Shown here one piece after another: positions 51,683 to 59,844 of a stretch of DNA of 64,000 nucleotides (its first letter is position 1; the number at the start of each line of letters is the position of its first letter). The DNA lies in the NCBI GenBank assembly GCA_039193195.1, contig JBCCWS010000007.1:62001-126000 (forward strand). Reading direction: 5' to 3'. This stretch comes from Pseudomonadota bacterium (GTDB taxonomy: Bacteria > Pseudomonadota > Gammaproteobacteria > Steroidobacterales > JBCBZW01). The notes beneath the pieces are model-generated. The model searched no databases, was not told where the DNA came from, and saw nothing but the letters and a program-made list of their open reading frames with translations. Both the position numbers and the translations under genes were made by a program.

Positions 51683-53500
51683 ATGGACAACCGGCTGACA
51701 GGGAATCGGAATAGGCGCCTGGGCGCGTTCGCGGCGCTGTCGTTGGCGACGGTGGCGAGCGCTACAGGCGCCGCCGACGCGGACTGGCCTGTCTTCGGCA
51801 ACGACTTAGCGAACGGGCGCTACAGCCAGCTTGAGCAACTCACCACGGACAACGTGGCGGACTTGCAGCTCGCCTGGCGTGTGGATACGGGTAAGCGTGG
51901 CAGCTTTCAGGCCACGCCCATCGTGCGCGAGGGCATCATGTACGTCTCCACGCCCTTCAATCACGTACTCGCCCTCGATGCGGCGAGCGGCGCGCAACGC
52001 TGGCGCTACGAGCACGTGTTGACGACGAAGGAGTTCTGCTGCGGTCCTGCCAACCGTGGCGTCGGCGTCGCCCATGGCCGTGTATACATGGCGACGCTAG
52101 ACGGTCAGCTAGTGGCCCTCGATGCGGGCACAGGCGAGCTCGCTTGGCAGGCGCCGATCGTGGATGCTGAGGCACGCAGCCAGCAAGCCCAGGCTCGCGA
52201 GGCTATAACGCCGTTGATGGGTGACAGTACCTTCAGCGGTGCTAAGGTGACGGGCGGCACGGGCTACAGCGCCAACATGGCGCCGCAAGTGGTGGGTGAC
52301 ACGGTGCTCGTAGGTATCACGGGTGCCGGCTACGGACTTCACTTAGACCTCGAACGCGAGGCGGGCGAGGCGCTCTCGGTGGTGGGCTTGGCGGGCGGCC
52401 TCAACGGCTTGCGTGGCTTTCTTGTGGCCTACGATGCCCACACGGGCCAAGAGCGCTGGCGATGGTACAGCGTGCAGGGCCCCGACTGGGCTGGAGAGTA
52501 CGCCGAGCGAACCGCCTACGGGGCTGAGCTTGCGGATCGCGACGGTGAGGCGGAGCGTGTGCGAGCCGAGGAGTTTGCCGAGTCCTGGCGCCTCGGTGGT
52601 GGCTCGATCTGGACCACGCCGGCCGTGGATCTCGAGCTGGGTCTGCTCTACATCGGCACCGGCAATCCGGCGCCGCAGATGGCTGGTGAGTCCAGGCCCG
52701 GGGACAATCGCGACACGGTCAGTCTCGTCGCCCTCGATCTGAAGACAGGCCGCGAGGCCTGGGCCTACCAGCAGGTGCCTCACGACGTTTGGGGCTACGA
52801 TGTGGCAAGTCCGCCTGTGCTGGCCAGCGTCTTCATTGACGGTGCCATACGCGAGGTGGTAGCTCAGGCCAGTAAGACCGGGTGGATCTTCATGCACGAC
52901 CGGCGCACGGGCGAGCTGCTGCAGCGCTCCGAGCCTTTCGTGCCCCAGCGCAACCTGTTTAGGGCGCCGTCCGCCGAGGGTGTGGAGGTGGCGCCGGCGA
53001 TCTTGGGAGGCGCGTCCTGGTCACCGATGGCCTACTCGCCGGCGAGCGCGAGCTTCTTCGTCGCTGCGATTCATCAGCCTGCTACCTATTATATACGTTC
53101 GCTGGATGGATCTCAGGGGCCTTTGCGTAGCTATGCGTACATGGAGTTGAGCGGCGAGGAGCGCTGGGGTTTGCTATCCGCCCTCGATGCGCGCACGGGT
53201 AGGCTTCGCTGGCAGCAGCGTACGGCGCAACCTCTGGTAGGTGGCGTGCTGGCCACCGCCGGTGGGCTGCTCTTCTGTGGCGAGGGCGACGGCCATTTCA
53301 ATGCCTACGATGCCGAGAATGGCGAGCGCCTGTGGCGTTGGCGTGCCCCCTACGGTGTCAACGCGCCGCCCGTGACCTACTCGGTGGACGGCCGCCAGTA
53401 CGTTGCGGTCGCTGCCGGTGGCAACGCCCTGTTCGGTTTCGCCACGGGCGATGCGATTCTCACCTTCGCCCTGCCTGCGCAAGGCGATGTTAGGCGTTAG
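51683..53500 (+). CDS. Pyrroloquinoline-quinone-type dehydrogenase, exported
   Basis: About 605 residues from ATG 51683. The N-terminal region (RRLGAFAALSLATVASATGA) is a signal peptide. The mature protein is an eight-bladed propeller with tryptophan-dock type repeats (LVALDAGTGELAWQ, LVAYDAHTGQERWRW, ALDLKTGREAWAYQ, ALDARTGRLRWQQ, YDAENGERLWRWR). Vicinal cysteines Cys119-Cys120 (KEFCCGPANRGV) match the disulphide ring over PQQ. QVPHDVWGYD contains the conserved catalytic/ligand Asp region. A fused cytochrome domain is absent. Substrate is unknown (alcohol, aldose or similar), and no pqq genes are in the window. Confidence 0.86.
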   Translation: MDNRLTGNRNRRLGAFAALSLATVASATGAADADWPVFGNDLANGRYSQLEQLTTDNVADLQLAWRVDTGKRGSFQATPIVREGIMYVSTPFNHVLALDAASGAQRWRYEHVLTTKEFCCGPANRGVGVAHGRVYMATLDGQLVALDAGTGELAWQAPIVDAEARSQQAQAREAITPLMGDSTFSGAKVTGGTGYSANMAPQVVGDTVLVGITGAGYGLHLDLEREAGEALSVVGLAGGLNGLRGFLVAYDAHTGQERWRWYSVQGPDWAGEYAERTAYGAELADRDGEAERVRAEEFAESWRLGGGSIWTTPAVDLELGLLYIGTGNPAPQMAGESRPGDNRDTVSLVALDLKTGREAWAYQQVPHDVWGYDVASPPVLASVFIDGAIREVVAQASKTGWIFMHDRRTGELLQRSEPFVPQRNLFRAPSAEGVEVAPAILGGASWSPMAYSPASASFFVAAIHQPATYYIRSLDGSQGPLRSYAYMELSGEERWGLLSALDARTGRLRWQQRTAQPLVGGVLATAGGLLFCGEGDGHFNAYDAENGERLWRWRAPYGVNAPPVTYSVDGRQYVAVAAGGNALFGFATGDAILTFALPAQGDVRR

Positions 53501-54707
53501 GTGCGAGCCCCAGCTCGACGGTGCCGTCTAGGGTCTGGCAGACCAGCCCTCGAGGGAGGTCGAGCTTGTCAGCAACGTCGTCCATCACCGCGCGCTCGAG
53601 TTCACCGACGTGATCCTCGGCGCCGGCGATCAGACAGAGATCGCGTAGCAGCTGCGTGCGCTGGGATGAGCTTGCCTGCTCGCGCACCGTCGCGAGACGT
53701 GCGTCCAGCTCGCCCACGGTCTTCTCCACGTCGATGCGATCGCTGAGGCTGCCGCTGCCGAAGAACTTCTCGAATACCTCGGTCTCTGCCGCGGTGATTT
53801 CACCGTCAGCGTTTGCCACCGCGAGCGCGGCCGCGAAGAGGGCCCGGCGCATGGACTCGGCCACGCCGGTACGACCCTCCAGGTAAGAGGGTTCCATCAA
53901 GCTCATGATCGATTGCACTGCCACCTCAAGCTGCTCCTTGGGGGTGCCGTCTGGCTGGGCCAGTGCGGAGCGATAGAACAAGGCCAGGGCCTTCACGCGC
54001 AGGGGGCTGAAGGGGTGGGTGGAGAACCAGTCCTCCTTCGGTGCGCCCTGGCCGGGTTCGCCGTCGTGCACCTGCATCTCGTCCACCTGACGCAGGAAAT
54101 CGTCGAGCTGGAAGGCGATGGTGCGATCGCTGAGGCCCGAGGCGAGCTTGAATAGCGCCTTGGCAACGGTCCCGAGCTTTTCCGTGCAATGGGCGCCGGC
54201 GCGGTCTGCCGATATTTCTGCGTAGCGGGACCAGGCGAAGAGCTCCAGGGCCAAGCGTGCGTCGGGTTTCTGCCGTCCGCGTAGAACGTGGCCAATGGGT
54301 ATGTCGTGGTGTCGGTACAGGTGGTGGCCGAGTTCGTGGCCCATCACGAAGCCGACCTCCTGATCGTCGAAGTGCTCCAGCAGGCTGGAGGCGAACATGA
54401 TGAACAGGCGACCGTCCTCGGGCTTGAAGCAAGCCGCGTTGTACTGGGGGCTGGCGAAGACGTAGAGCTCGACGGGTATCTCGATGCCGAGCCGTTCGAT
54501 GCAGCGATCTGCGATCTTGTGCACGTGAGGCGCCATGCGCTCGCTCAGGCGCACGGAGGTGGCGAGCAGGTGGCGGCGGACCTTTAGCGCGCCGTGATCC
54601 TCGGCTTGCTGCGCCAATTGAGAGTTCACCCGCTTGATGTCGGGGTGTTCGAGCAGCTGTTGGGAGAGTTTTAGGTCGTTGCTGCAGCGGATATCGTGAG
54701 CGTTCAT
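53490..54707 (-). CDS. M48-family metallopeptidase with C-terminal TerB-like domain
   Basis: 405 residues from ATG 54707. The N-terminal zinc peptidase has HELGH (124-128) and the third ligand Glu164 in RYAEISADRAG, and THPFSPLRVKAL is the usual M48 trailing motif. The C-terminal part (about 280-400) has TerB-like features: AALAVANADGEITAAETEVFEKFF followed by helices, the pattern D-G-x-x-x-x-E. There is no signal peptide or membrane helix, so it is cytosolic, unlike HtpX. It is the last gene of a three- or four-gene minus-strand cluster with two unknown proteins. A link to stress or envelope surveillance is only suggested by domain type. Confidence 0.87.
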   Translation of the reverse strand: MNAHDIRCSNDLKLSQQLLEHPDIKRVNSQLAQQAEDHGALKVRRHLLATSVRLSERMAPHVHKIADRCIERLGIEIPVELYVFASPQYNAACFKPEDGRLFIMFASSLLEHFDDQEVGFVMGHELGHHLYRHHDIPIGHVLRGRQKPDARLALELFAWSRYAEISADRAGAHCTEKLGTVAKALFKLASGLSDRTIAFQLDDFLRQVDEMQVHDGEPGQGAPKEDWFSTHPFSPLRVKALALFYRSALAQPDGTPKEQLEVAVQSIMSLMEPSYLEGRTGVAESMRRALFAAALAVANADGEITAAETEVFEKFFGSGSLSDRIDVEKTVGELDARLATVREQASSSQRTQLLRDLCLIAGAEDHVGELERAVMDDVADKLDLPRGLVCQTLDGTVELGLAPNA

Positions 54708-54753
54708 GGCGGTCCTGTGGTCAGTCGCGAGGGGCACGGGCCTAATCGTGTTA

Positions 54754-55344
54754 TCAGGTTTTCAGCGAATCGAATTCTGAGAGGTGCTGCAGCAGCGCGT
54801 AGAGGGGGCGCTCCACGCCTTCGCGCGTGTCGGCCTCTGCTAGGTGCTTGATCGACTCGACGATGGCTATCCACCAACGCATGTGGCCGGTGCTGAGCTG
54901 CGCGGCGATGTCGATCAGATCTTGCGCCATCGGCAGGGTGGAGATGGCGACGCGCTTGACCTCGACCAGCGTGTCCGTGTCCAGCTCCATCTTCTGCATC
55001 GAGTCCATCAGGCGTAGCACCACCCTTGGCTGTGTCTCCAGATCGCGCGTCGTGGCCGGTTCGGCGTCCGCGTCGAGGTAGGCGAGATCGAGGTGCGATA
55101 GGAAGTCGCGAAGCGCCCCGCGCAGGCTGAGCCACAGCTCGCGCCGCCGATCCATCTCGCGCAGCTGCTGCACGAAGGTCAATAGGCCGACCAGAAAGAA
55201 GCCCTCCAGGCAAAACCCGATGAGCTCCGGCAGCAGGTTCTCGTGCACCGCGGCGCCGCCGGCCTGGCCGATGAACAGAATGTACAGGCCGACGCCGCCA
55301 ACGCCGAAAATGGCGAGGGGCAGGGCGAGCAGCCAGCGGCTCAT
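54754..55344 (-). CDS. Two-helix membrane protein of unknown function
   Basis: A 196-residue protein with two N-terminal membrane helices (about 4-28 and 40-60: LLALPLAIFGVGGVGLYILF, LIGFCLEGFFLVGLLTFV) and then a long cytoplasmic helical domain (about 65-196) beginning QLREMDRRRELW. No motif is recognised. The start overlaps the upstream gene by 4 nt, so it is coupled to the integrase-N-like protein. The M48 gene follows after 46 nt. Confidence 0.75.
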   Translation of the reverse strand: MSRWLLALPLAIFGVGGVGLYILFIGQAGGAAVHENLLPELIGFCLEGFFLVGLLTFVQQLREMDRRRELWLSLRGALRDFLSHLDLAYLDADAEPATTRDLETQPRVVLRLMDSMQKMELDTDTLVEVKRVAISTLPMAQDLIDIAAQLSTGHMRWWIAIVESIKHLAEADTREGVERPLYALLQHLSEFDSLKT

Positions 55345-55880
55345 TGCTCGGCCTCCTCGGTGTCGTCGACGAACGCTTCGATCACCCGCACGATCTTACG
55401 GGCCTGAGCCGCGCTGAGGTCCGCTGGCAGGTTCTGGATATACACCACCTCGTCGCCGCCAATGGGTACTGGGACGACGTCCGGTCGGGCGTTGGTGATG
55501 CTGAGCTTGGCCCGTTCGAGGGCCTGCTCTTCCTGGGAGCGGGTTCGGTGGGCGGTCGCCGAGCGTCGTTCGCTGGCGCTGGCCACGAACTGATCAGGGT
55601 CTTCGACGAAGCGAAAGTAGTCCGTGAGCGCATCGCGCATGCGCTTCTCGTAGACGCGCAGGACCTCGGGCCGCATGGTCCCGTCCACCTTCTGGCAGCG
55701 ATGGACCAGCGTGCTGACATCAAGCTGGCGCAGGTCCGCCCGCTCCACCGCGGTGAGTTGGGTGAACAGGCGTTGGGCGGCCTGCACGCGGCTTCGTGCC
55801 GTGGCCGGGTTTAAGCGCCCCGCCATCGCAGCTTCCCTCAGGAATGCCAGTAGCCCTTCCGGGGAGTAGTCCGCACTCAT
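55341..55880 (-). CDS. Protein with integrase-N-like helical domain, unknown function
   Basis: A 179-residue soluble protein. Residues 8-90 (LLAFLREAAMAGRLNPATAR, then QLDVSTLVHRCQKV and YEKRMRDALTDYFRFVED) resemble the SAM-like core-binding domain of tyrosine recombinases, but there is no catalytic domain. Residues about 100-170 include VPIGGDEVVYIQNLPADLSAAQARKI, a beta-alpha segment that may be a regulatory domain. It may be a DNA-binding or adaptor protein. The ATG overlaps the stop of a 38-codon micro-ORF (ATGA), and the next gene overlaps its stop. Confidence 0.72.
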   Translation of the reverse strand: MSADYSPEGLLAFLREAAMAGRLNPATARSRVQAAQRLFTQLTAVERADLRQLDVSTLVHRCQKVDGTMRPEVLRVYEKRMRDALTDYFRFVEDPDQFVASASERRSATAHRTRSQEEQALERAKLSITNARPDVVPVPIGGDEVVYIQNLPADLSAAQARKIVRVIEAFVDDTEEAEQ

Positions 55881-55993
55881 CGATTTACCCTGTGGTCCCG
55901 GCGCTGCCTCCAGGCTGCTTGCGGCCTTGAGTGTGCGAGCAGCAGCGGGTAGCGCTTGAGGCGCTGGCTGCGGAGGATGTCATCGGCGTTCAT
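55877..55993 (-). CDS. 38-codon micro-ORF resembling the start of the M48 gene
   Basis: It runs from ATG 55993 to a TGA that overlaps the next gene's ATG. It reads MNADDILRSQRLKRYPLLLA then HSRPQAAWRQ. The M48 gene begins MNAHDIRCSNDLKLSQQLLE then HPDIKR. Eleven of the first 21 positions agree, and the leader GACCGCCATGAACG is common to both. It may be a leftover from a duplication of the M48 gene's start, or a genuine leader peptide coupling translation. Coding status uncertain. Confidence 0.45.
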   Translation of the reverse strand: MNADDILRSQRLKRYPLLLAHSRPQAAWRQRRDHRVNR

Positions 55994-56067
55994 GGCGGTC
56001 TCGGGCGTTGGGACTCCCCCGATTCTGCCAGACAGCCGCCGCCGAAACCCGCCGGCCGCAAACGGTG

Positions 56068-57405
56068 CTAGTGGCCCGCGAGCGTGGCGAACGCCGTGCG
56101 TGTGAGGTTTTCGTGGCCGCCGCGCAAGGCGACTACATCGTCTTCGATGCGAATGCCGCCGAACGGTGTCAGCTGCTCGACCAGCCCCCAGTTCACATGC
56201 TTGCCCGCATCCTCGGCGCGCAAGTGCTCCAGCACGGTGGGAATGAAGTAGAGCCCGGGTTCTATCGTCACTACCTCGCGCTCACGCAGCTGACGCGTAA
56301 GGCGCAGGAAGGGATGCTCCTGCGGCGGATCGATACGGCCTCCTTCGGCCTTCGACTGAAAGCCGCCCACGTCATGCACCTGCAGGCCGAGGTAGTGGCC
56401 GAGGCCGTGGGGGAAGAAGGCGCGGGTGATGCCGGCCTCGACGGCGCCCTCAAGGCTAATGCTATTGATCAACTCGGCTTCGTCCAGCACGCGCGCCAAC
56501 ATCTCGTGGCACTGCAGCTGCAACTCGACGTAGTCGACCCCCGCCTTCACCTGATCGCACACGGCCTGCTGCAGCCGGTCCATCGTTGAGAGAAGGGTGG
56601 CAAAGGGGCCGTTGACCTCGCGCTCGGTGGTGTAGGTGCGGGTGATATCGCTCGCGTAGCCGTCCGCCATCGCACCTGCGTCGATGAGAAAGCTGCGGTG
56701 CTCCGCTGGCGTTCTTCGGTCGAGCTTTTGGTAGTGCAGGATGGCGGCGTGTTCGTTCAGGCAGACGATGCTAGGGTAGGGCAGGTCCGCATCCGTGGCA
56801 TCGATCGCCTGCAGGTAGTGCTGGTGGATTTGATACTCGCTGGCGCCATGCGAGAAGGCGGCTGCGGCGGCCTGGTGCGCCTGGGCACCTAGTGCATTCG
56901 CGCGCCGGAGGCAGGTCAGCTCGTAGTCTGTCTTGACCGAGCGGGCGAAGTTCAGGCGGCGCACGAGTGCGGGCGGATTCAAGCTCGCATGGGCACACGC
57001 CGGTGGCACGTGGTCGGCCTCGCCGAGCCAGGCGCAACGCCCGCCGTCGCCCAGCTGGCGAACGATGTCGTTCACATCGTCGGCGACGATCACATCGAAT
57101 GCCATCTGCACCATGGGTGGCGGCGCTGGCGCTGCGGCGTGCCAGAAGTCGCCGGGCTGGTGGCAGAACAGGCGCGGGCGCTCGCCGCGTAGGAATACGA
57201 TCGCATGGCCCGGGGTGTTCATCGGCACCCAAGCGCGAAAGTGCGCGGTGGCACGGAAAGGGTAGGCCGAATCGTCGAAGGGCAGCATGCGCTCGACGCC
57301 AGCGAAAACCACCACGCGATCGAGATCGGCCGCCTTCATAGCCTCCTCGTAGCGCGAGACCATGATCTGCACGTGAGCTGCGTATTCGTGGGCGAGTGAG
57401 GCCAT
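56068..57405 (-). CDS. pepQ: Xaa-Pro dipeptidase
   Basis: Hydrolyses X-Pro dipeptides. 445 residues from ATG 57405 (E. coli PepQ 443). The N-terminus ASLAHEYAAHVQ and the early FDDSAYPFRATAHFRAWVP block are PepQ-like. Metal ligands are in LIDAGAMADGYASDITRTY (two Asp), HGLGHYLGLQVHDVG (His), TIEPGLYF (Glu) and GGIRIEDDV (Glu). An in-frame ATG 12 codons earlier is less family-like. Upstream and downstream neighbours seem unrelated. Confidence 0.96.
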   Translation of the reverse strand: MASLAHEYAAHVQIMVSRYEEAMKAADLDRVVVFAGVERMLPFDDSAYPFRATAHFRAWVPMNTPGHAIVFLRGERPRLFCHQPGDFWHAAAPAPPPMVQMAFDVIVADDVNDIVRQLGDGGRCAWLGEADHVPPACAHASLNPPALVRRLNFARSVKTDYELTCLRRANALGAQAHQAAAAAFSHGASEYQIHQHYLQAIDATDADLPYPSIVCLNEHAAILHYQKLDRRTPAEHRSFLIDAGAMADGYASDITRTYTTEREVNGPFATLLSTMDRLQQAVCDQVKAGVDYVELQLQCHEMLARVLDEAELINSISLEGAVEAGITRAFFPHGLGHYLGLQVHDVGGFQSKAEGGRIDPPQEHPFLRLTRQLREREVVTIEPGLYFIPTVLEHLRAEDAGKHVNWGLVEQLTPFGGIRIEDDVVALRGGHENLTRTAFATLAGH

Positions 57406-57462
57406 GAGCGGTCGTTTCCGTGGCGGTGAGCAGGGATTCACCCCATGCTCGGTGGCCGCGGG

Positions 57463-59844
57463 TCAGATGTCCAGACTCGCCTCGACCGTGCGCGCTGCGA
57501 GCAGGAGGGGATGGTCCGTGTCGGCCTGTGCCAAGGCGCTGTTCACCGCGGCCAGGTAGGGCGCGGCGGCGGCGCCATCGCCCTCGCGCTGGAGTAGCTT
57601 GGCCATGCCGAGGTTCGCTTCGACGTTTGCCGGATAGCGAGTGAGCACGAACTCGAAGTTGCTGCGCGCATCGTCCAGGCGGCCCTGCTCGAGATAGACA
57701 TCGGCAAGCCGCGTGACGATCTCGAACTCAAGGTTCTCATCCTGAATACGCTGGATAGATGCGAGGTAGGCAGTACGCGCCTTCTCGAGTTCGGTAATGG
57801 CCTCGTCGGGTCTGCCTAGCAGGCTGAGCACCCGGCCCGTGTAGTAGCCGACGTAAGCGCGCATGTGATCCAGGCCCAGCGTCTCCAAGAGCTCGCCGGC
57901 CGCATCGCCGTGGAGCTGGGCGGTTTGTGGGTCGCCCATGGCCACAGCCACCTTTAGATAGCCGACGTCTAGCAGCGTATTCAAGGGCGGCTGCAGCTGT
58001 GCTTCGTGTTTGCGTAGCATCTCCACCGCTTCCTCAACCTGCCCAGCCAGCACGTAGTGCTCCACGTGCTCCACCCACACGCCCATGATCACGTCGATGG
58101 GCGCGAGGAATTGGGTGGCCTGGTCAGCCAGGTCCGGCAGCTTGGCGACCACCTCTGTCTCTTGCCCCCGTTGGCCAAGGTAGGCGATGCGTTGGCGGAG
58201 CACGGCCGCGTGCTGTCGCGGGGTGGCGGCGATCTGTGACGCCTCATCGAGGCGTGCCAGGGCGGCGTCGTAGCGGCCCTCGCGCAGGTCTAGCTCAGCT
58301 AAGTTGAGCGTGGGGTCGACCATGCCGCGGGCGACGATCACGGCCCGCTCGAAGAAAGCCCGCGCCCGCGCCAGATCGCCCTCTCGGCGATGCAGGTTAC
58401 CCAGGCTGCTCAGGGGGCCTGGGTCGTCCGGTGCCGCCTCGACGTAGCGCGTGTAGTACTCGACGGCCGCTTCGCGGTTGCCTCCCAGTTCATGCAGGTA
58501 GGCAATTTTGGCGAGGAGCCAGGTCTCGCGCGGATCCAGATCGATAGCGCTCTCGTAGGATGTCAGAGCATTGCCAGGGTCGTTTTGCCCGTAGAGGTGG
58601 GCCGACCCGAGGTAGATGTAGGCCATGGGGTCGTTCGGGTGCAGCTCGGCCCAAGTCTCGTAGGTGGCCAGCTCCTTTTCGCGATCGCCGCGGAAGACGT
58701 AGTTCATGCCCTTGGCGACGAAGCGCTCGCGGTCGTTCAACTTGTAGTCGTGACGCAGGGCCGTCTGCATGGCCATGCCGCCGTCGAGCATCATGCCGCC
58801 CTCGAACAGCGCCCGTCCCATTGTGAGGTGGGCGACGGCGAAGGTGGGGTCCTCCTGCACCGCTTGTTGCCAAAGGCGGATAGCGCGGTCGCGATCGCTG
58901 TCGAGCAGTTGCGCGGTGATGCCGTTGGTGTGGGATTCAAATGCTGCTAGTGAATTGGTTAGTCGATCGGAAGTCGGCAGGTCGACGAAGACCTCCTCGC
59001 CGCCTGGCAGGTTGAGGGAGGCGAACATCTCAGCGGTGACTGCATCGATGGCAGCGAACAAGCGGCCGCCCTCGGGGCCGATGTCTTGGCGCATCTCGGC
59101 GAGCACGCGGGAGCTAGCCGTGTCGTAGAGCAGGGCGACCAGCTCTTTGGAGTCGCCCGCCGCGTTCACCTCGATCCGCCCGCCCACGAAGTACTCCATC
59201 AGCCCCTTGTCGGCGATCGTTCGCTTCAGGGCGACAGGCACCTTCAGACCATCATCGAAGCCGGCCTTGCGGAGCTGGAACATGCCGTAGGCTTCCATGC
59301 CGACGAAGGGTGACCAGGCCTTCACGTAAGGGTGCTGGATAAGATCGGCGTAGAGGGCGATGTTGGCGCCGTACTGCATCCAGTCGAGGCTTTCATCACC
59401 CGTGGCGTTGTCGAAGAAGAACAGGGTGATGCCCTGGCTGAGCGCCTGGGTAACCACGGGGCGGGTCATGGTCTCGCCCGTCGGATCGGTGACCGTGCGC
59501 GTCTCCAGGGCCAGCGGCGAAGCGTCCGCCCCCTTGAACGGTTGTCCGAAGAACAGCGTGCCGATCAAGGCGGTGCTAAGCAGGGCGTTGATGGGGATCG
59601 CCAGCTTGTCCGTGATGGTCCACTCCTGGTGCCCAGGCTCACCGTGGTTACGCGCTAGGAGCGCGACCGTGGGCGTGAAGGAGAGCAGGCCGATAAGCGT
59701 TAGATCGACCACCCGGTCCGGCAAGTTGTAGCGCCCAACTAGCCAGTCGGCGAACTCGACCGCCACCCAACAGGCACCAATATAAAGGCCCAGGGTTCGC
59801 AGCATCGGCCAGGTAATCAGCTTTTTGGTCACAGGGGCGCTCAC
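57463..59844 (-). CDS. Membrane-anchored TolB/FlgO-like and TPR-repeat protein
   Basis: 793 residues from GTG 59844 (reading SAPVTKKLITWPML). Two N-terminal membrane helices (about 14-35 and 40-58) are followed by a third (about 78-95). Residues about 130-290 resemble the TolB-like/FlgO-like domain: FFDNATGDESLDWMQYGANI, then GGRIEVNAAG. Residues about 330-790 carry some ten tetratricopeptide repeats (AVAHLTMGRALFEGG, MAYIYLGSAHLYG, PLSSLGNLHRREGDLARARAFFERA). Similar domain combinations are found in adenylate-cyclase-like signalling proteins, but no cyclase is present here. Probably a scaffold. The upstream start codon is not certain. Confidence 0.78.
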   Translation of the reverse strand: MSAPVTKKLITWPMLRTLGLYIGACWVAVEFADWLVGRYNLPDRVVDLTLIGLLSFTPTVALLARNHGEPGHQEWTITDKLAIPINALLSTALIGTLFFGQPFKGADASPLALETRTVTDPTGETMTRPVVTQALSQGITLFFFDNATGDESLDWMQYGANIALYADLIQHPYVKAWSPFVGMEAYGMFQLRKAGFDDGLKVPVALKRTIADKGLMEYFVGGRIEVNAAGDSKELVALLYDTASSRVLAEMRQDIGPEGGRLFAAIDAVTAEMFASLNLPGGEEVFVDLPTSDRLTNSLAAFESHTNGITAQLLDSDRDRAIRLWQQAVQEDPTFAVAHLTMGRALFEGGMMLDGGMAMQTALRHDYKLNDRERFVAKGMNYVFRGDREKELATYETWAELHPNDPMAYIYLGSAHLYGQNDPGNALTSYESAIDLDPRETWLLAKIAYLHELGGNREAAVEYYTRYVEAAPDDPGPLSSLGNLHRREGDLARARAFFERAVIVARGMVDPTLNLAELDLREGRYDAALARLDEASQIAATPRQHAAVLRQRIAYLGQRGQETEVVAKLPDLADQATQFLAPIDVIMGVWVEHVEHYVLAGQVEEAVEMLRKHEAQLQPPLNTLLDVGYLKVAVAMGDPQTAQLHGDAAGELLETLGLDHMRAYVGYYTGRVLSLLGRPDEAITELEKARTAYLASIQRIQDENLEFEIVTRLADVYLEQGRLDDARSNFEFVLTRYPANVEANLGMAKLLQREGDGAAAAPYLAAVNSALAQADTDHPLLLAARTVEASLDI

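What the first reader, a model, noticed from the sequence alone, without database searches (positions are those of the whole stretch)
53490..55993. Cytosolic M48/TerB peptidase cluster with an integrase-N-like protein and a repeated gene start
Four coupled minus-strand frames: a 38-codon micro-ORF, a protein resembling only the DNA-arm domain of recombinases, a two-helix membrane protein, and an M48 peptidase with TerB-like tail. The micro-ORF repeats the leader and N-terminus of the M48 gene (11 of 21 positions). This could be an undescribed protease-based stress or defence module, or the scar of a duplication.
Basis: inference. Interest (0 to 1): 0.6.

Follow-up and report, generated by a model that had tools for sequence, protein, structure and literature searches.

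The report
Accessory gene pair beside displaced peptidase start
A little-known two-gene pair, one DNA-binding-like protein and one small membrane protein, sits in front of an ordinary cytosolic peptidase gene, and the tiny extra frame beside it is a decayed copy of that peptidase gene's start rather than a real gene.

Summary
The four frames are real, but they do not form a protease-based module. In 296 genomes of the order, 12 have a strong M48-TerB relative and 3 have the membrane protein; both occur only in the window's genome and its one sampled congener. The DNA-binding-like protein (ORF2) and the membrane protein (ORF3) are a separable, ATGA-overlapping pair, found in G058 between an S13 carboxypeptidase gene and 5S rRNA, in a genome without any M48 match. 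ORF2 belongs to PHROG 2602; its model resembles a tyrosine-recombinase core-binding domain plus a short tail, and enterobacterial phage relatives often lie shortly downstream of cI. ORF3 is an unnamed two-TM family, wider than this pair. The micro-ORF is homologous to the M48 gene start (55 of 81 nt, 59 of 81 with the sister species; best of 1525 controls 38), shows no codon-level constraint and is not detectable in the sister species. Most likely history: the pair was inserted in front of M48, leaving a displaced copy of its start. Function is inference: a lysogeny-cargo, Rex-like exclusion pair (0.25-0.3).

The parts
55877..55993 (-). Micro-ORF (38 codons); decayed, displaced copy of the M48 gene start, probably not a functional gene
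55931..56000 (-). Repeat copy 1 (relic): leader and first codons, 74% identical to copy 2
   Evidence: family D1; controls
54645..54714 (-). Repeat copy 2: leader and first codons of the intact M48 gene
   Evidence: family D1
55341..55880 (-). ORF2, 179 aa, PHROG 2602 family: integrase core-binding-like fold (about 1-93) plus a short strand-strand-helix tail; no recombinase catalytic domain found
   Evidence: purifying selection
54754..55344 (-). ORF3, 196 aa, two-TM membrane protein with a helical C-terminal part (cytoplasmic by charge, inferred); unnamed family
   Evidence: (low-confidence model); purifying selection
53490..54707 (-). M48 peptidase with C-terminal TerB domain, 405 aa from ATG 54707; HELGH at 124, EISAD at 164, no TM
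56068..57441 (-). Upstream neighbour: Xaa-Pro dipeptidase (PepQ-like, M24)
   Evidence: same neighbour in G001

Best explanation
Two unrelated things lie side by side. (1) A cytosolic M48-TerB peptidase gene, found patchily in six sampled families of this order; outside the window's genus it was not seen with these neighbours. (2) A separable two-gene accessory unit, ORF2-ORF3, inserted between the PepQ-like gene and M48 before the window's species and its sister parted. The insertion, or the rearrangement that brought it, left a displaced ~70-80 bp copy of the M48 start on the far side of the unit, as integrative elements do when they end in a host gene; that copy is now the decaying micro-ORF (history: about 0.75). 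Proposed function of the pair (about 0.25-0.3, inferred): a lysogeny-cargo exclusion pair that works like RexAB. ORF2 would bind DNA through its core-binding-like fold and sense phage DNA or its processing; ORF3 would be the membrane effector, gated through its cytoplasmic helical part. Shown: anatomy, homology of the repeat, separability, patchy distribution, phage relatives of ORF2. Inferred: insertion mechanism, DNA binding, ORF2-ORF3 interaction, exclusion phenotype.
For: Pair in G058, with the same 4-nt overlap, between an S13 D-Ala-D-Ala carboxypeptidase gene and 5S rRNA, in a genome with no M48 match. The related G024 has neither ORF2 nor ORF3; its interval between that gene and 5S holds a c-di-GMP-I riboswitch and an oppositely read frame. 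ORF3 in 3 of 296 order genomes, M48 in 12 of 296. ORF2 matches PHROG 2602 at 2.2e-14 over residues 4-171. Phage relatives: shortly downstream of cI in Oslo and phi-8 (about 170 and 500 nt; both cI genes Pfam-checked) and beside the integrase in YP3; a cI relative lies within about 600 nt upstream in 14 of 19 viral loci, many of them near-identical to each other. ORF3 relatives lie between icd and the integrase at an E. coli prophage edge. ORF2 residues 1-93 align best with core-binding domains, Z 6-7.5. Repeat statistics; codon-position differences and 5 of 6 sister-type bases. ORF2 and ORF3 evolve under purifying selection (45 synonymous-codon against 16 residue changes; 55 against 11).
Against: No integrase or transposase gene lies between the repeats, and G058 shows no comparable flanking repeat. 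No empty site was found; among the sampled relatives only G001 shares the genus. ORF3 is found in 34 of 398 genomes of the phylum; the 19 such loci scanned have no ORF2 within about 1.5 kb, and in 8 of the 19, by eye, a DUF3301-like gene stands upstream, which looks chromosomal rather than defensive. The phage ORF2 relatives inspected (Oslo, phi-8, YP3) and the 3 other ORF2 relatives in the class have no ORF3 nearby. Neither protein resembles RexA or RexB by sequence, and PADLOC names neither. Core-binding Z values are under 8, SRP54 domains score up to 6.4, and Foldseek alone gives no match at E <= 0.001.
Confidence: 0.5

Rival explanations
1. The M48-TerB peptidase, ORF2 and ORF3 form one functional protease-based stress or defence operon.
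For: Same strand, tight spacing, same order kept in G001 at 89, 94 and 93% protein identity; no minus-strand terminator-like site in 53000-57600.
Against: M48 without ORF3 in 10 of 12 M48 genomes and ORF3 without M48 in 1 of 3 ORF3 genomes; around the six M48 relatives outside the genus whose stretches were fetched, none showed ORF2, ORF3 or PepQ (one stretch has only 529 bases before M48). PADLOC gives only a weak capP match (E 0.0028) to M48.
Confidence: 0.1
2. ORF2-ORF3 is a chromosomal membrane-tethered DNA-binding unit (for example anchoring or regulating a chromosomal region) with no role against phages.
For: ORF3 relatives outside the class have a recurring context (DUF3301-like gene, by eye in 8 of 19 loci; DUF3301 and APS kinase Pfam-checked in one); no phage gene among the neighbours of the window pair that were checked with Pfam.
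Against: Patchy occurrence in its own order (3 of 296); ORF2 relatives sit in phages shortly downstream of cI.
Confidence: 0.3
3. The micro-ORF is a translated leader peptide kept to couple translation into ORF2.
For: Open for 38 codons, carries a copied start region, its stop overlaps the ORF2 start.
Against: Not detectable in the sister species; differences spread evenly over codon positions; ORF2 has its own AGGG 7 nt upstream of its ATG (direct reading).
Confidence: 0.1
4. The micro-ORF is the stump of an older duplication of M48 and has nothing to do with how ORF2-ORF3 arrived.
For: Only a partial copy remains; no transposition or integration gene between the copies.
Against: The copies flank the pair, one on each side; no further M48 coding sequence is recognisable beyond about +70.
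Confidence: 0.25

Closest known systems
PHROG 2602 (phage protein family of unknown function)
   Same: ORF2 matches the profile over nearly its full length, E 2.2e-14
   Different: ORF2 is followed by ORF3; no ORF3 match lies near the members inspected in Oslo, phi-8 and YP3
RexAB of phage lambda and of P. putida (PMC12894663: abstract, outline and section 8 read; PMC11077077: passages read)
   Same: Two-gene unit: soluble DNA-binding-like protein plus membrane protein; ORF2 relatives lie downstream of cI, as rexA does in lambda
   Different: No sequence relation found; core-binding-like instead of RdgC-like fold; two instead of four TM segments; no cI recognised beside the window pair
Tyrosine recombinase core-binding domain (lambda Int 74-159, XerA and others)
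   Same: Helical fold of ORF2 residues 1-93, Z 6-7.5
   Different: No catalytic domain; short different C-terminal tail
M48 peptidases and TerB domain (Pfam PF01435, PF05099)
   Same: Above Pfam cut-offs; HEXXH present
   Different: No TM segments, unlike HtpX as recalled; far below HtpX cut-offs in NCBIfam
Gene-end duplication by integrative elements (e.g. prophages in icd; recalled, general knowledge)
   Same: Displaced partial copy of a host gene on the far side of inserted DNA
   Different: Here the 5' end of the gene, and no integrase remains

Membership tests
PHROG 2602 | Profile match over most of the protein | tested here: met
   E 2.2e-14, residues 4-171 against profile 5-170 of 173
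Tyrosine recombinase | Core-binding domain fold | tested here: inconclusive
   9 of the top 10 rows are named integrases or recombinases, Z 6.4-7.5, but under 8; Pfam Phage_int_SAM_1 only for the phi-8 relative, E 0.047, below cut-off
Tyrosine recombinase | Catalytic domain | tested here: not met
   No Phage_integrase match (the same library finds it in the YP3 integrase); 179 aa with two strands and one helix after the linker helix
RexAB | RexA homologue | tested here: not met
   Sequence level only: hhalign of the nine-member ORF2 profile with lambda RexA, probability 0.1, E 0.41
RexAB | Four-TM RexB | tested here: not met
   Two hydrophobic segments in ORF3 and three relatives; no RexB match
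RexAB | Phage exclusion activity | not testable with these tools
   Needs plaque assays
M48 peptidase | HEXXH and downstream Glu motif, Pfam cut-off | tested here: met
   75.5 bits against 20.3; HELGH 124, EISAD 164
TerB | Pfam cut-off | tested here: met
   33.7 bits against 24.4
HtpX | NCBIfam equivalog cut-off and TM segments | tested here: not met
   Best 37.4 bits against 369; maximum 19-residue hydropathy 1.25
Site-specific integrative element | Flanking direct repeat derived from the host gene | tested here: met
   Repeat D1 flanks the pair in the window; not detectable in G001
Site-specific integrative element | Own integrase between the repeats | tested here: not met
   ORF2 and ORF3 fill the space
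Known anti-phage systems | PADLOC profile match | tested here: not met
   No match for ORF2 or ORF3; M48 weak capP match E 0.0028

The most novel reading that the evidence does not exclude
A new two-component phage-exclusion type, analogous but unrelated to RexAB: a recombinase core-binding fold reused as a DNA sensor (PHROG 2602, including the family downstream of cI in lambdoid phages of Salmonella and E. coli) driving a two-TM effector, moved between chromosomes as a minimal cassette that lands at gene starts and displaces the host start.
Probability: 0.15. Interest if true: 0.65.

Novelty: new variant of a known kind. Interest (0 to 1): 0.32.

Why it matters
It separates an ordinary peptidase from a testable, uncharacterised gene pair, explains a puzzling micro-ORF as an insertion-era scar, and points to a phage protein family of unknown function (PHROG 2602) that often sits near cI in lambdoid phages and could be assayed directly for phage exclusion.

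Tried and rejected
Rejected: the protease module (co-occurrence counts); a conserved micro-protein; RexA/RexB homology at sequence level; a PDB sequence relative of ORF2 (only an E 0.63 match) or of M48 by phmmer (none at 0.01). Led nowhere: genome-contig scans with M48 and ORF3 found no relative; viral scans with the window ORF2, with alignment A1, with the G079 protein and with the E. coli ORF3 relative found none; plasmid search with ORF2 and phage search with the E. coli ORF3 relative found none. A class search with the single ORF3 sequence found it only in the window genome among 369. The ORF3 model is poor (mean pLDDT 57.9) and was not searched. The search for ORF2-like genes in ORF3-bearing records covered 2 of the 3 asked for and found none, but nothing rang in its controls, so it shows little. 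No RexA chain was among the rows; that shows nothing either way. Papers: TerB with M48 and metallopeptidase, 0 papers; 'phrog 2602', 0 papers; other searches, of which I saw listings only, except PMC12894663 (abstract, outline, section 8), PMC11077077 (passages) and PMC10127798 (passages).

Weighed down during the work: I first read ORF3 as purely prophage cargo; the phylum search showed a wider family, so the exclusion reading was lowered.
Full report
Observation. The four frames exist as described. On the minus strand, after a PepQ-like Xaa-Pro dipeptidase (56068-57441), come the micro-ORF, ORF2, ORF3 and the M48-TerB gene. Micro-ORF and ORF2, and ORF2 and ORF3, overlap by 4 nt; ORF3 and M48 are 46 nt apart. 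The M48 gene most likely starts at ATG 54707, because an ATG and the conserved N-terminus stand there in G001, G016 and G052. It has HELGH and EISAD motifs, no segment of membrane strength, and Pfam M48 and TerB matches above cut-off.

The repeat is real and not chance. The micro-ORF region matches the M48 start over 70 nt at 74%. Over 81 nt from -12 to +69 it agrees at 55 positions, and at 59 with the M48 start of the sister species G001; 1525 other ATG-anchored windows from both strands of the window reach at most 36 and 38. Similarity drops at both ends. The exact 15-mer GACCGCCATGAACGC occurs at these two places only in the assembly.

The copy is a relic. Between micro-ORF and the G001 M48 start, differences at codon positions 1, 2, 3 are 5, 6, 5 (5, 7, 8 against the window's own M48); between the two M48 orthologues they are 0, 1, 5. 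At the 6 sites where the orthologues differ, the micro-ORF has the G001 base at 5, so the copy is older than most changes specific to the window's M48. In G001 the spacer before ORF2 has no detectable copy (score 20 against a shuffle mean of 19.8), though it aligns with the last 47 nt or so of the window spacer (score 34, reached by 2 of 500 shuffles). ORF2, ORF3 and M48 themselves evolve as genes (synonymous-codon against residue changes 45:16, 55:11, 108:29).

Separability. In 59 sampled genomes, own included, ORF2 and ORF3 occur in the window genome, G001 and G058 only. In 296 genomes of the order, ORF3 occurs in those same 3 and M48 at E <= 1e-100 in 12, from six families; the overlap is the two congeners. 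G058 has no M48 match even at E <= 0.001. Around the six M48 relatives outside the genus whose stretches were fetched, no ORF2, ORF3 or PepQ was found. M48 is itself patchy, so its being older in the order than the pair is an inference. In G058 the pair keeps its 4-nt overlap and lies between an S13 carboxypeptidase gene and 5S rRNA. In the related G024, which lacks the pair, that interval holds a c-di-GMP-I riboswitch and an oppositely read frame. The pair is thus a separable accessory unit, and the M48 link was seen in one genus only.

What ORF2 is. It matches PHROG 2602, function unknown, over nearly its full length. Relatives in Salmonella phage Oslo and E. coli phage phi-8 lie downstream of cI, at about 170 nt (with one small annotated frame between) and 500 nt. 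Of 19 viral loci found with the Oslo protein, 14 have a cI relative upstream, one of them only at 25-29% identity; many of the 19 are near-identical, so they are not independent. The phi-8 form occurs in 232 of 5426 complete E. coli genomes. In Yersinia phage YP3 a relative lies beside the integrase. Three further relatives in 369 genomes of the class have no ORF3 nearby. The AlphaFold model (mean pLDDT 73, blocks of residues 1-100 above 80) resembles tyrosine-recombinase core-binding domains in residues 1-93: 9 of the top 10 rows, Z 6.4-7.5. Foldseek alone gives no match at E <= 0.001, Z below 8 can be a common arrangement, and SRP54 domains reach 6.4. No catalytic domain was found.

What ORF3 is. 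Two hydrophobic segments and a C-terminal helical part, the segments also in three relatives (the model is poor). Relatives: an E. coli gene between icd and the integrase at a prophage edge, in 33 of 5426 genomes; a viral contig; and 34 of 398 genomes of the phylum, own genome included, one of them a broken fragment, 32 of them outside the class. The 19 of those loci that I scanned have no ORF2 within about 1.5 kb. In 8 of the 19, by eye, a DUF3301-like gene stands upstream; Pfam confirmed it in the one tested, where an APS kinase precedes it. Shared features are an invariant P and C at the entry of the second segment, H-x3-W and a C-terminal F. This spread speaks against reading ORF3 as a defence gene everywhere.

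Mechanism. History (about 0.75): a unit holding ORF2-ORF3 came in front of M48 before the two species parted, and a displaced copy of the M48 start was left beyond it. Elements that end in host genes leave such copies (recalled, general knowledge). No integrase remains, no empty site was found, and G058 shows no comparable flanking repeat, so the route is inferred. Function (0.25-0.3): ORF2 binds DNA and gates ORF3 in the membrane, as RexA and RexB are thought to do. PMC12894663 (abstract, outline and section 8 read) describes a P. putida pair of DNA-binding protein and membrane effector, two genes away from a CI-like repressor, and calls it RexAB-type; PMC11077077 (passages read) describes lambda RexA. 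Neither ORF2 nor ORF3 is related to RexA or RexB by sequence here, ORF3 has two rather than four segments, and PADLOC names neither. It may work like Rex; it is not a member.

Verdict. What remains of interest is an uncharacterised pair and the phage family PHROG 2602.

Noticed in passing
Window 54700-54740 and 55880-55905 (-); L022 9490-9520 and 10640-10670: The leaders of ORF2 and of M48 share GACC[A/G]CAGG in both species, with the same base variant within each genome (read); a shared operator, gene conversion or chance.
   Followed up: no
L022 11906-12700: The sister species has a 264-aa SdiA-regulated-family gene between M48 and the PQQ dehydrogenase gene; in the window those two genes' ends overlap by 11 nt (53490-53500).
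   Followed up: partly
L083 1492-3244 (-) and loci L069-L087: ORF3 relatives outside the class, in 8 of 19 loci by eye after a DUF3301-like gene: a recurring context for an unnamed two-TM family.
   Followed up: partly
L034 5953-6567; L044 6054-6668: An ORF3 relative lies between icd and the integrase at the edge of an E. coli prophage; 33 of 5426 complete genomes hold it.
   Followed up: partly
L041 6001-6519; L042 1854-2375: PHROG 2602 proteins sit downstream of cI in lambdoid phages without a partner recognised by the ORF3 profile.
   Followed up: partly
L066 950-1038 (+): A c-di-GMP-I riboswitch lies in G024 between 5S rRNA and the S13 carboxypeptidase gene, where G058 has the ORF2-ORF3 pair.
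   Followed up: no
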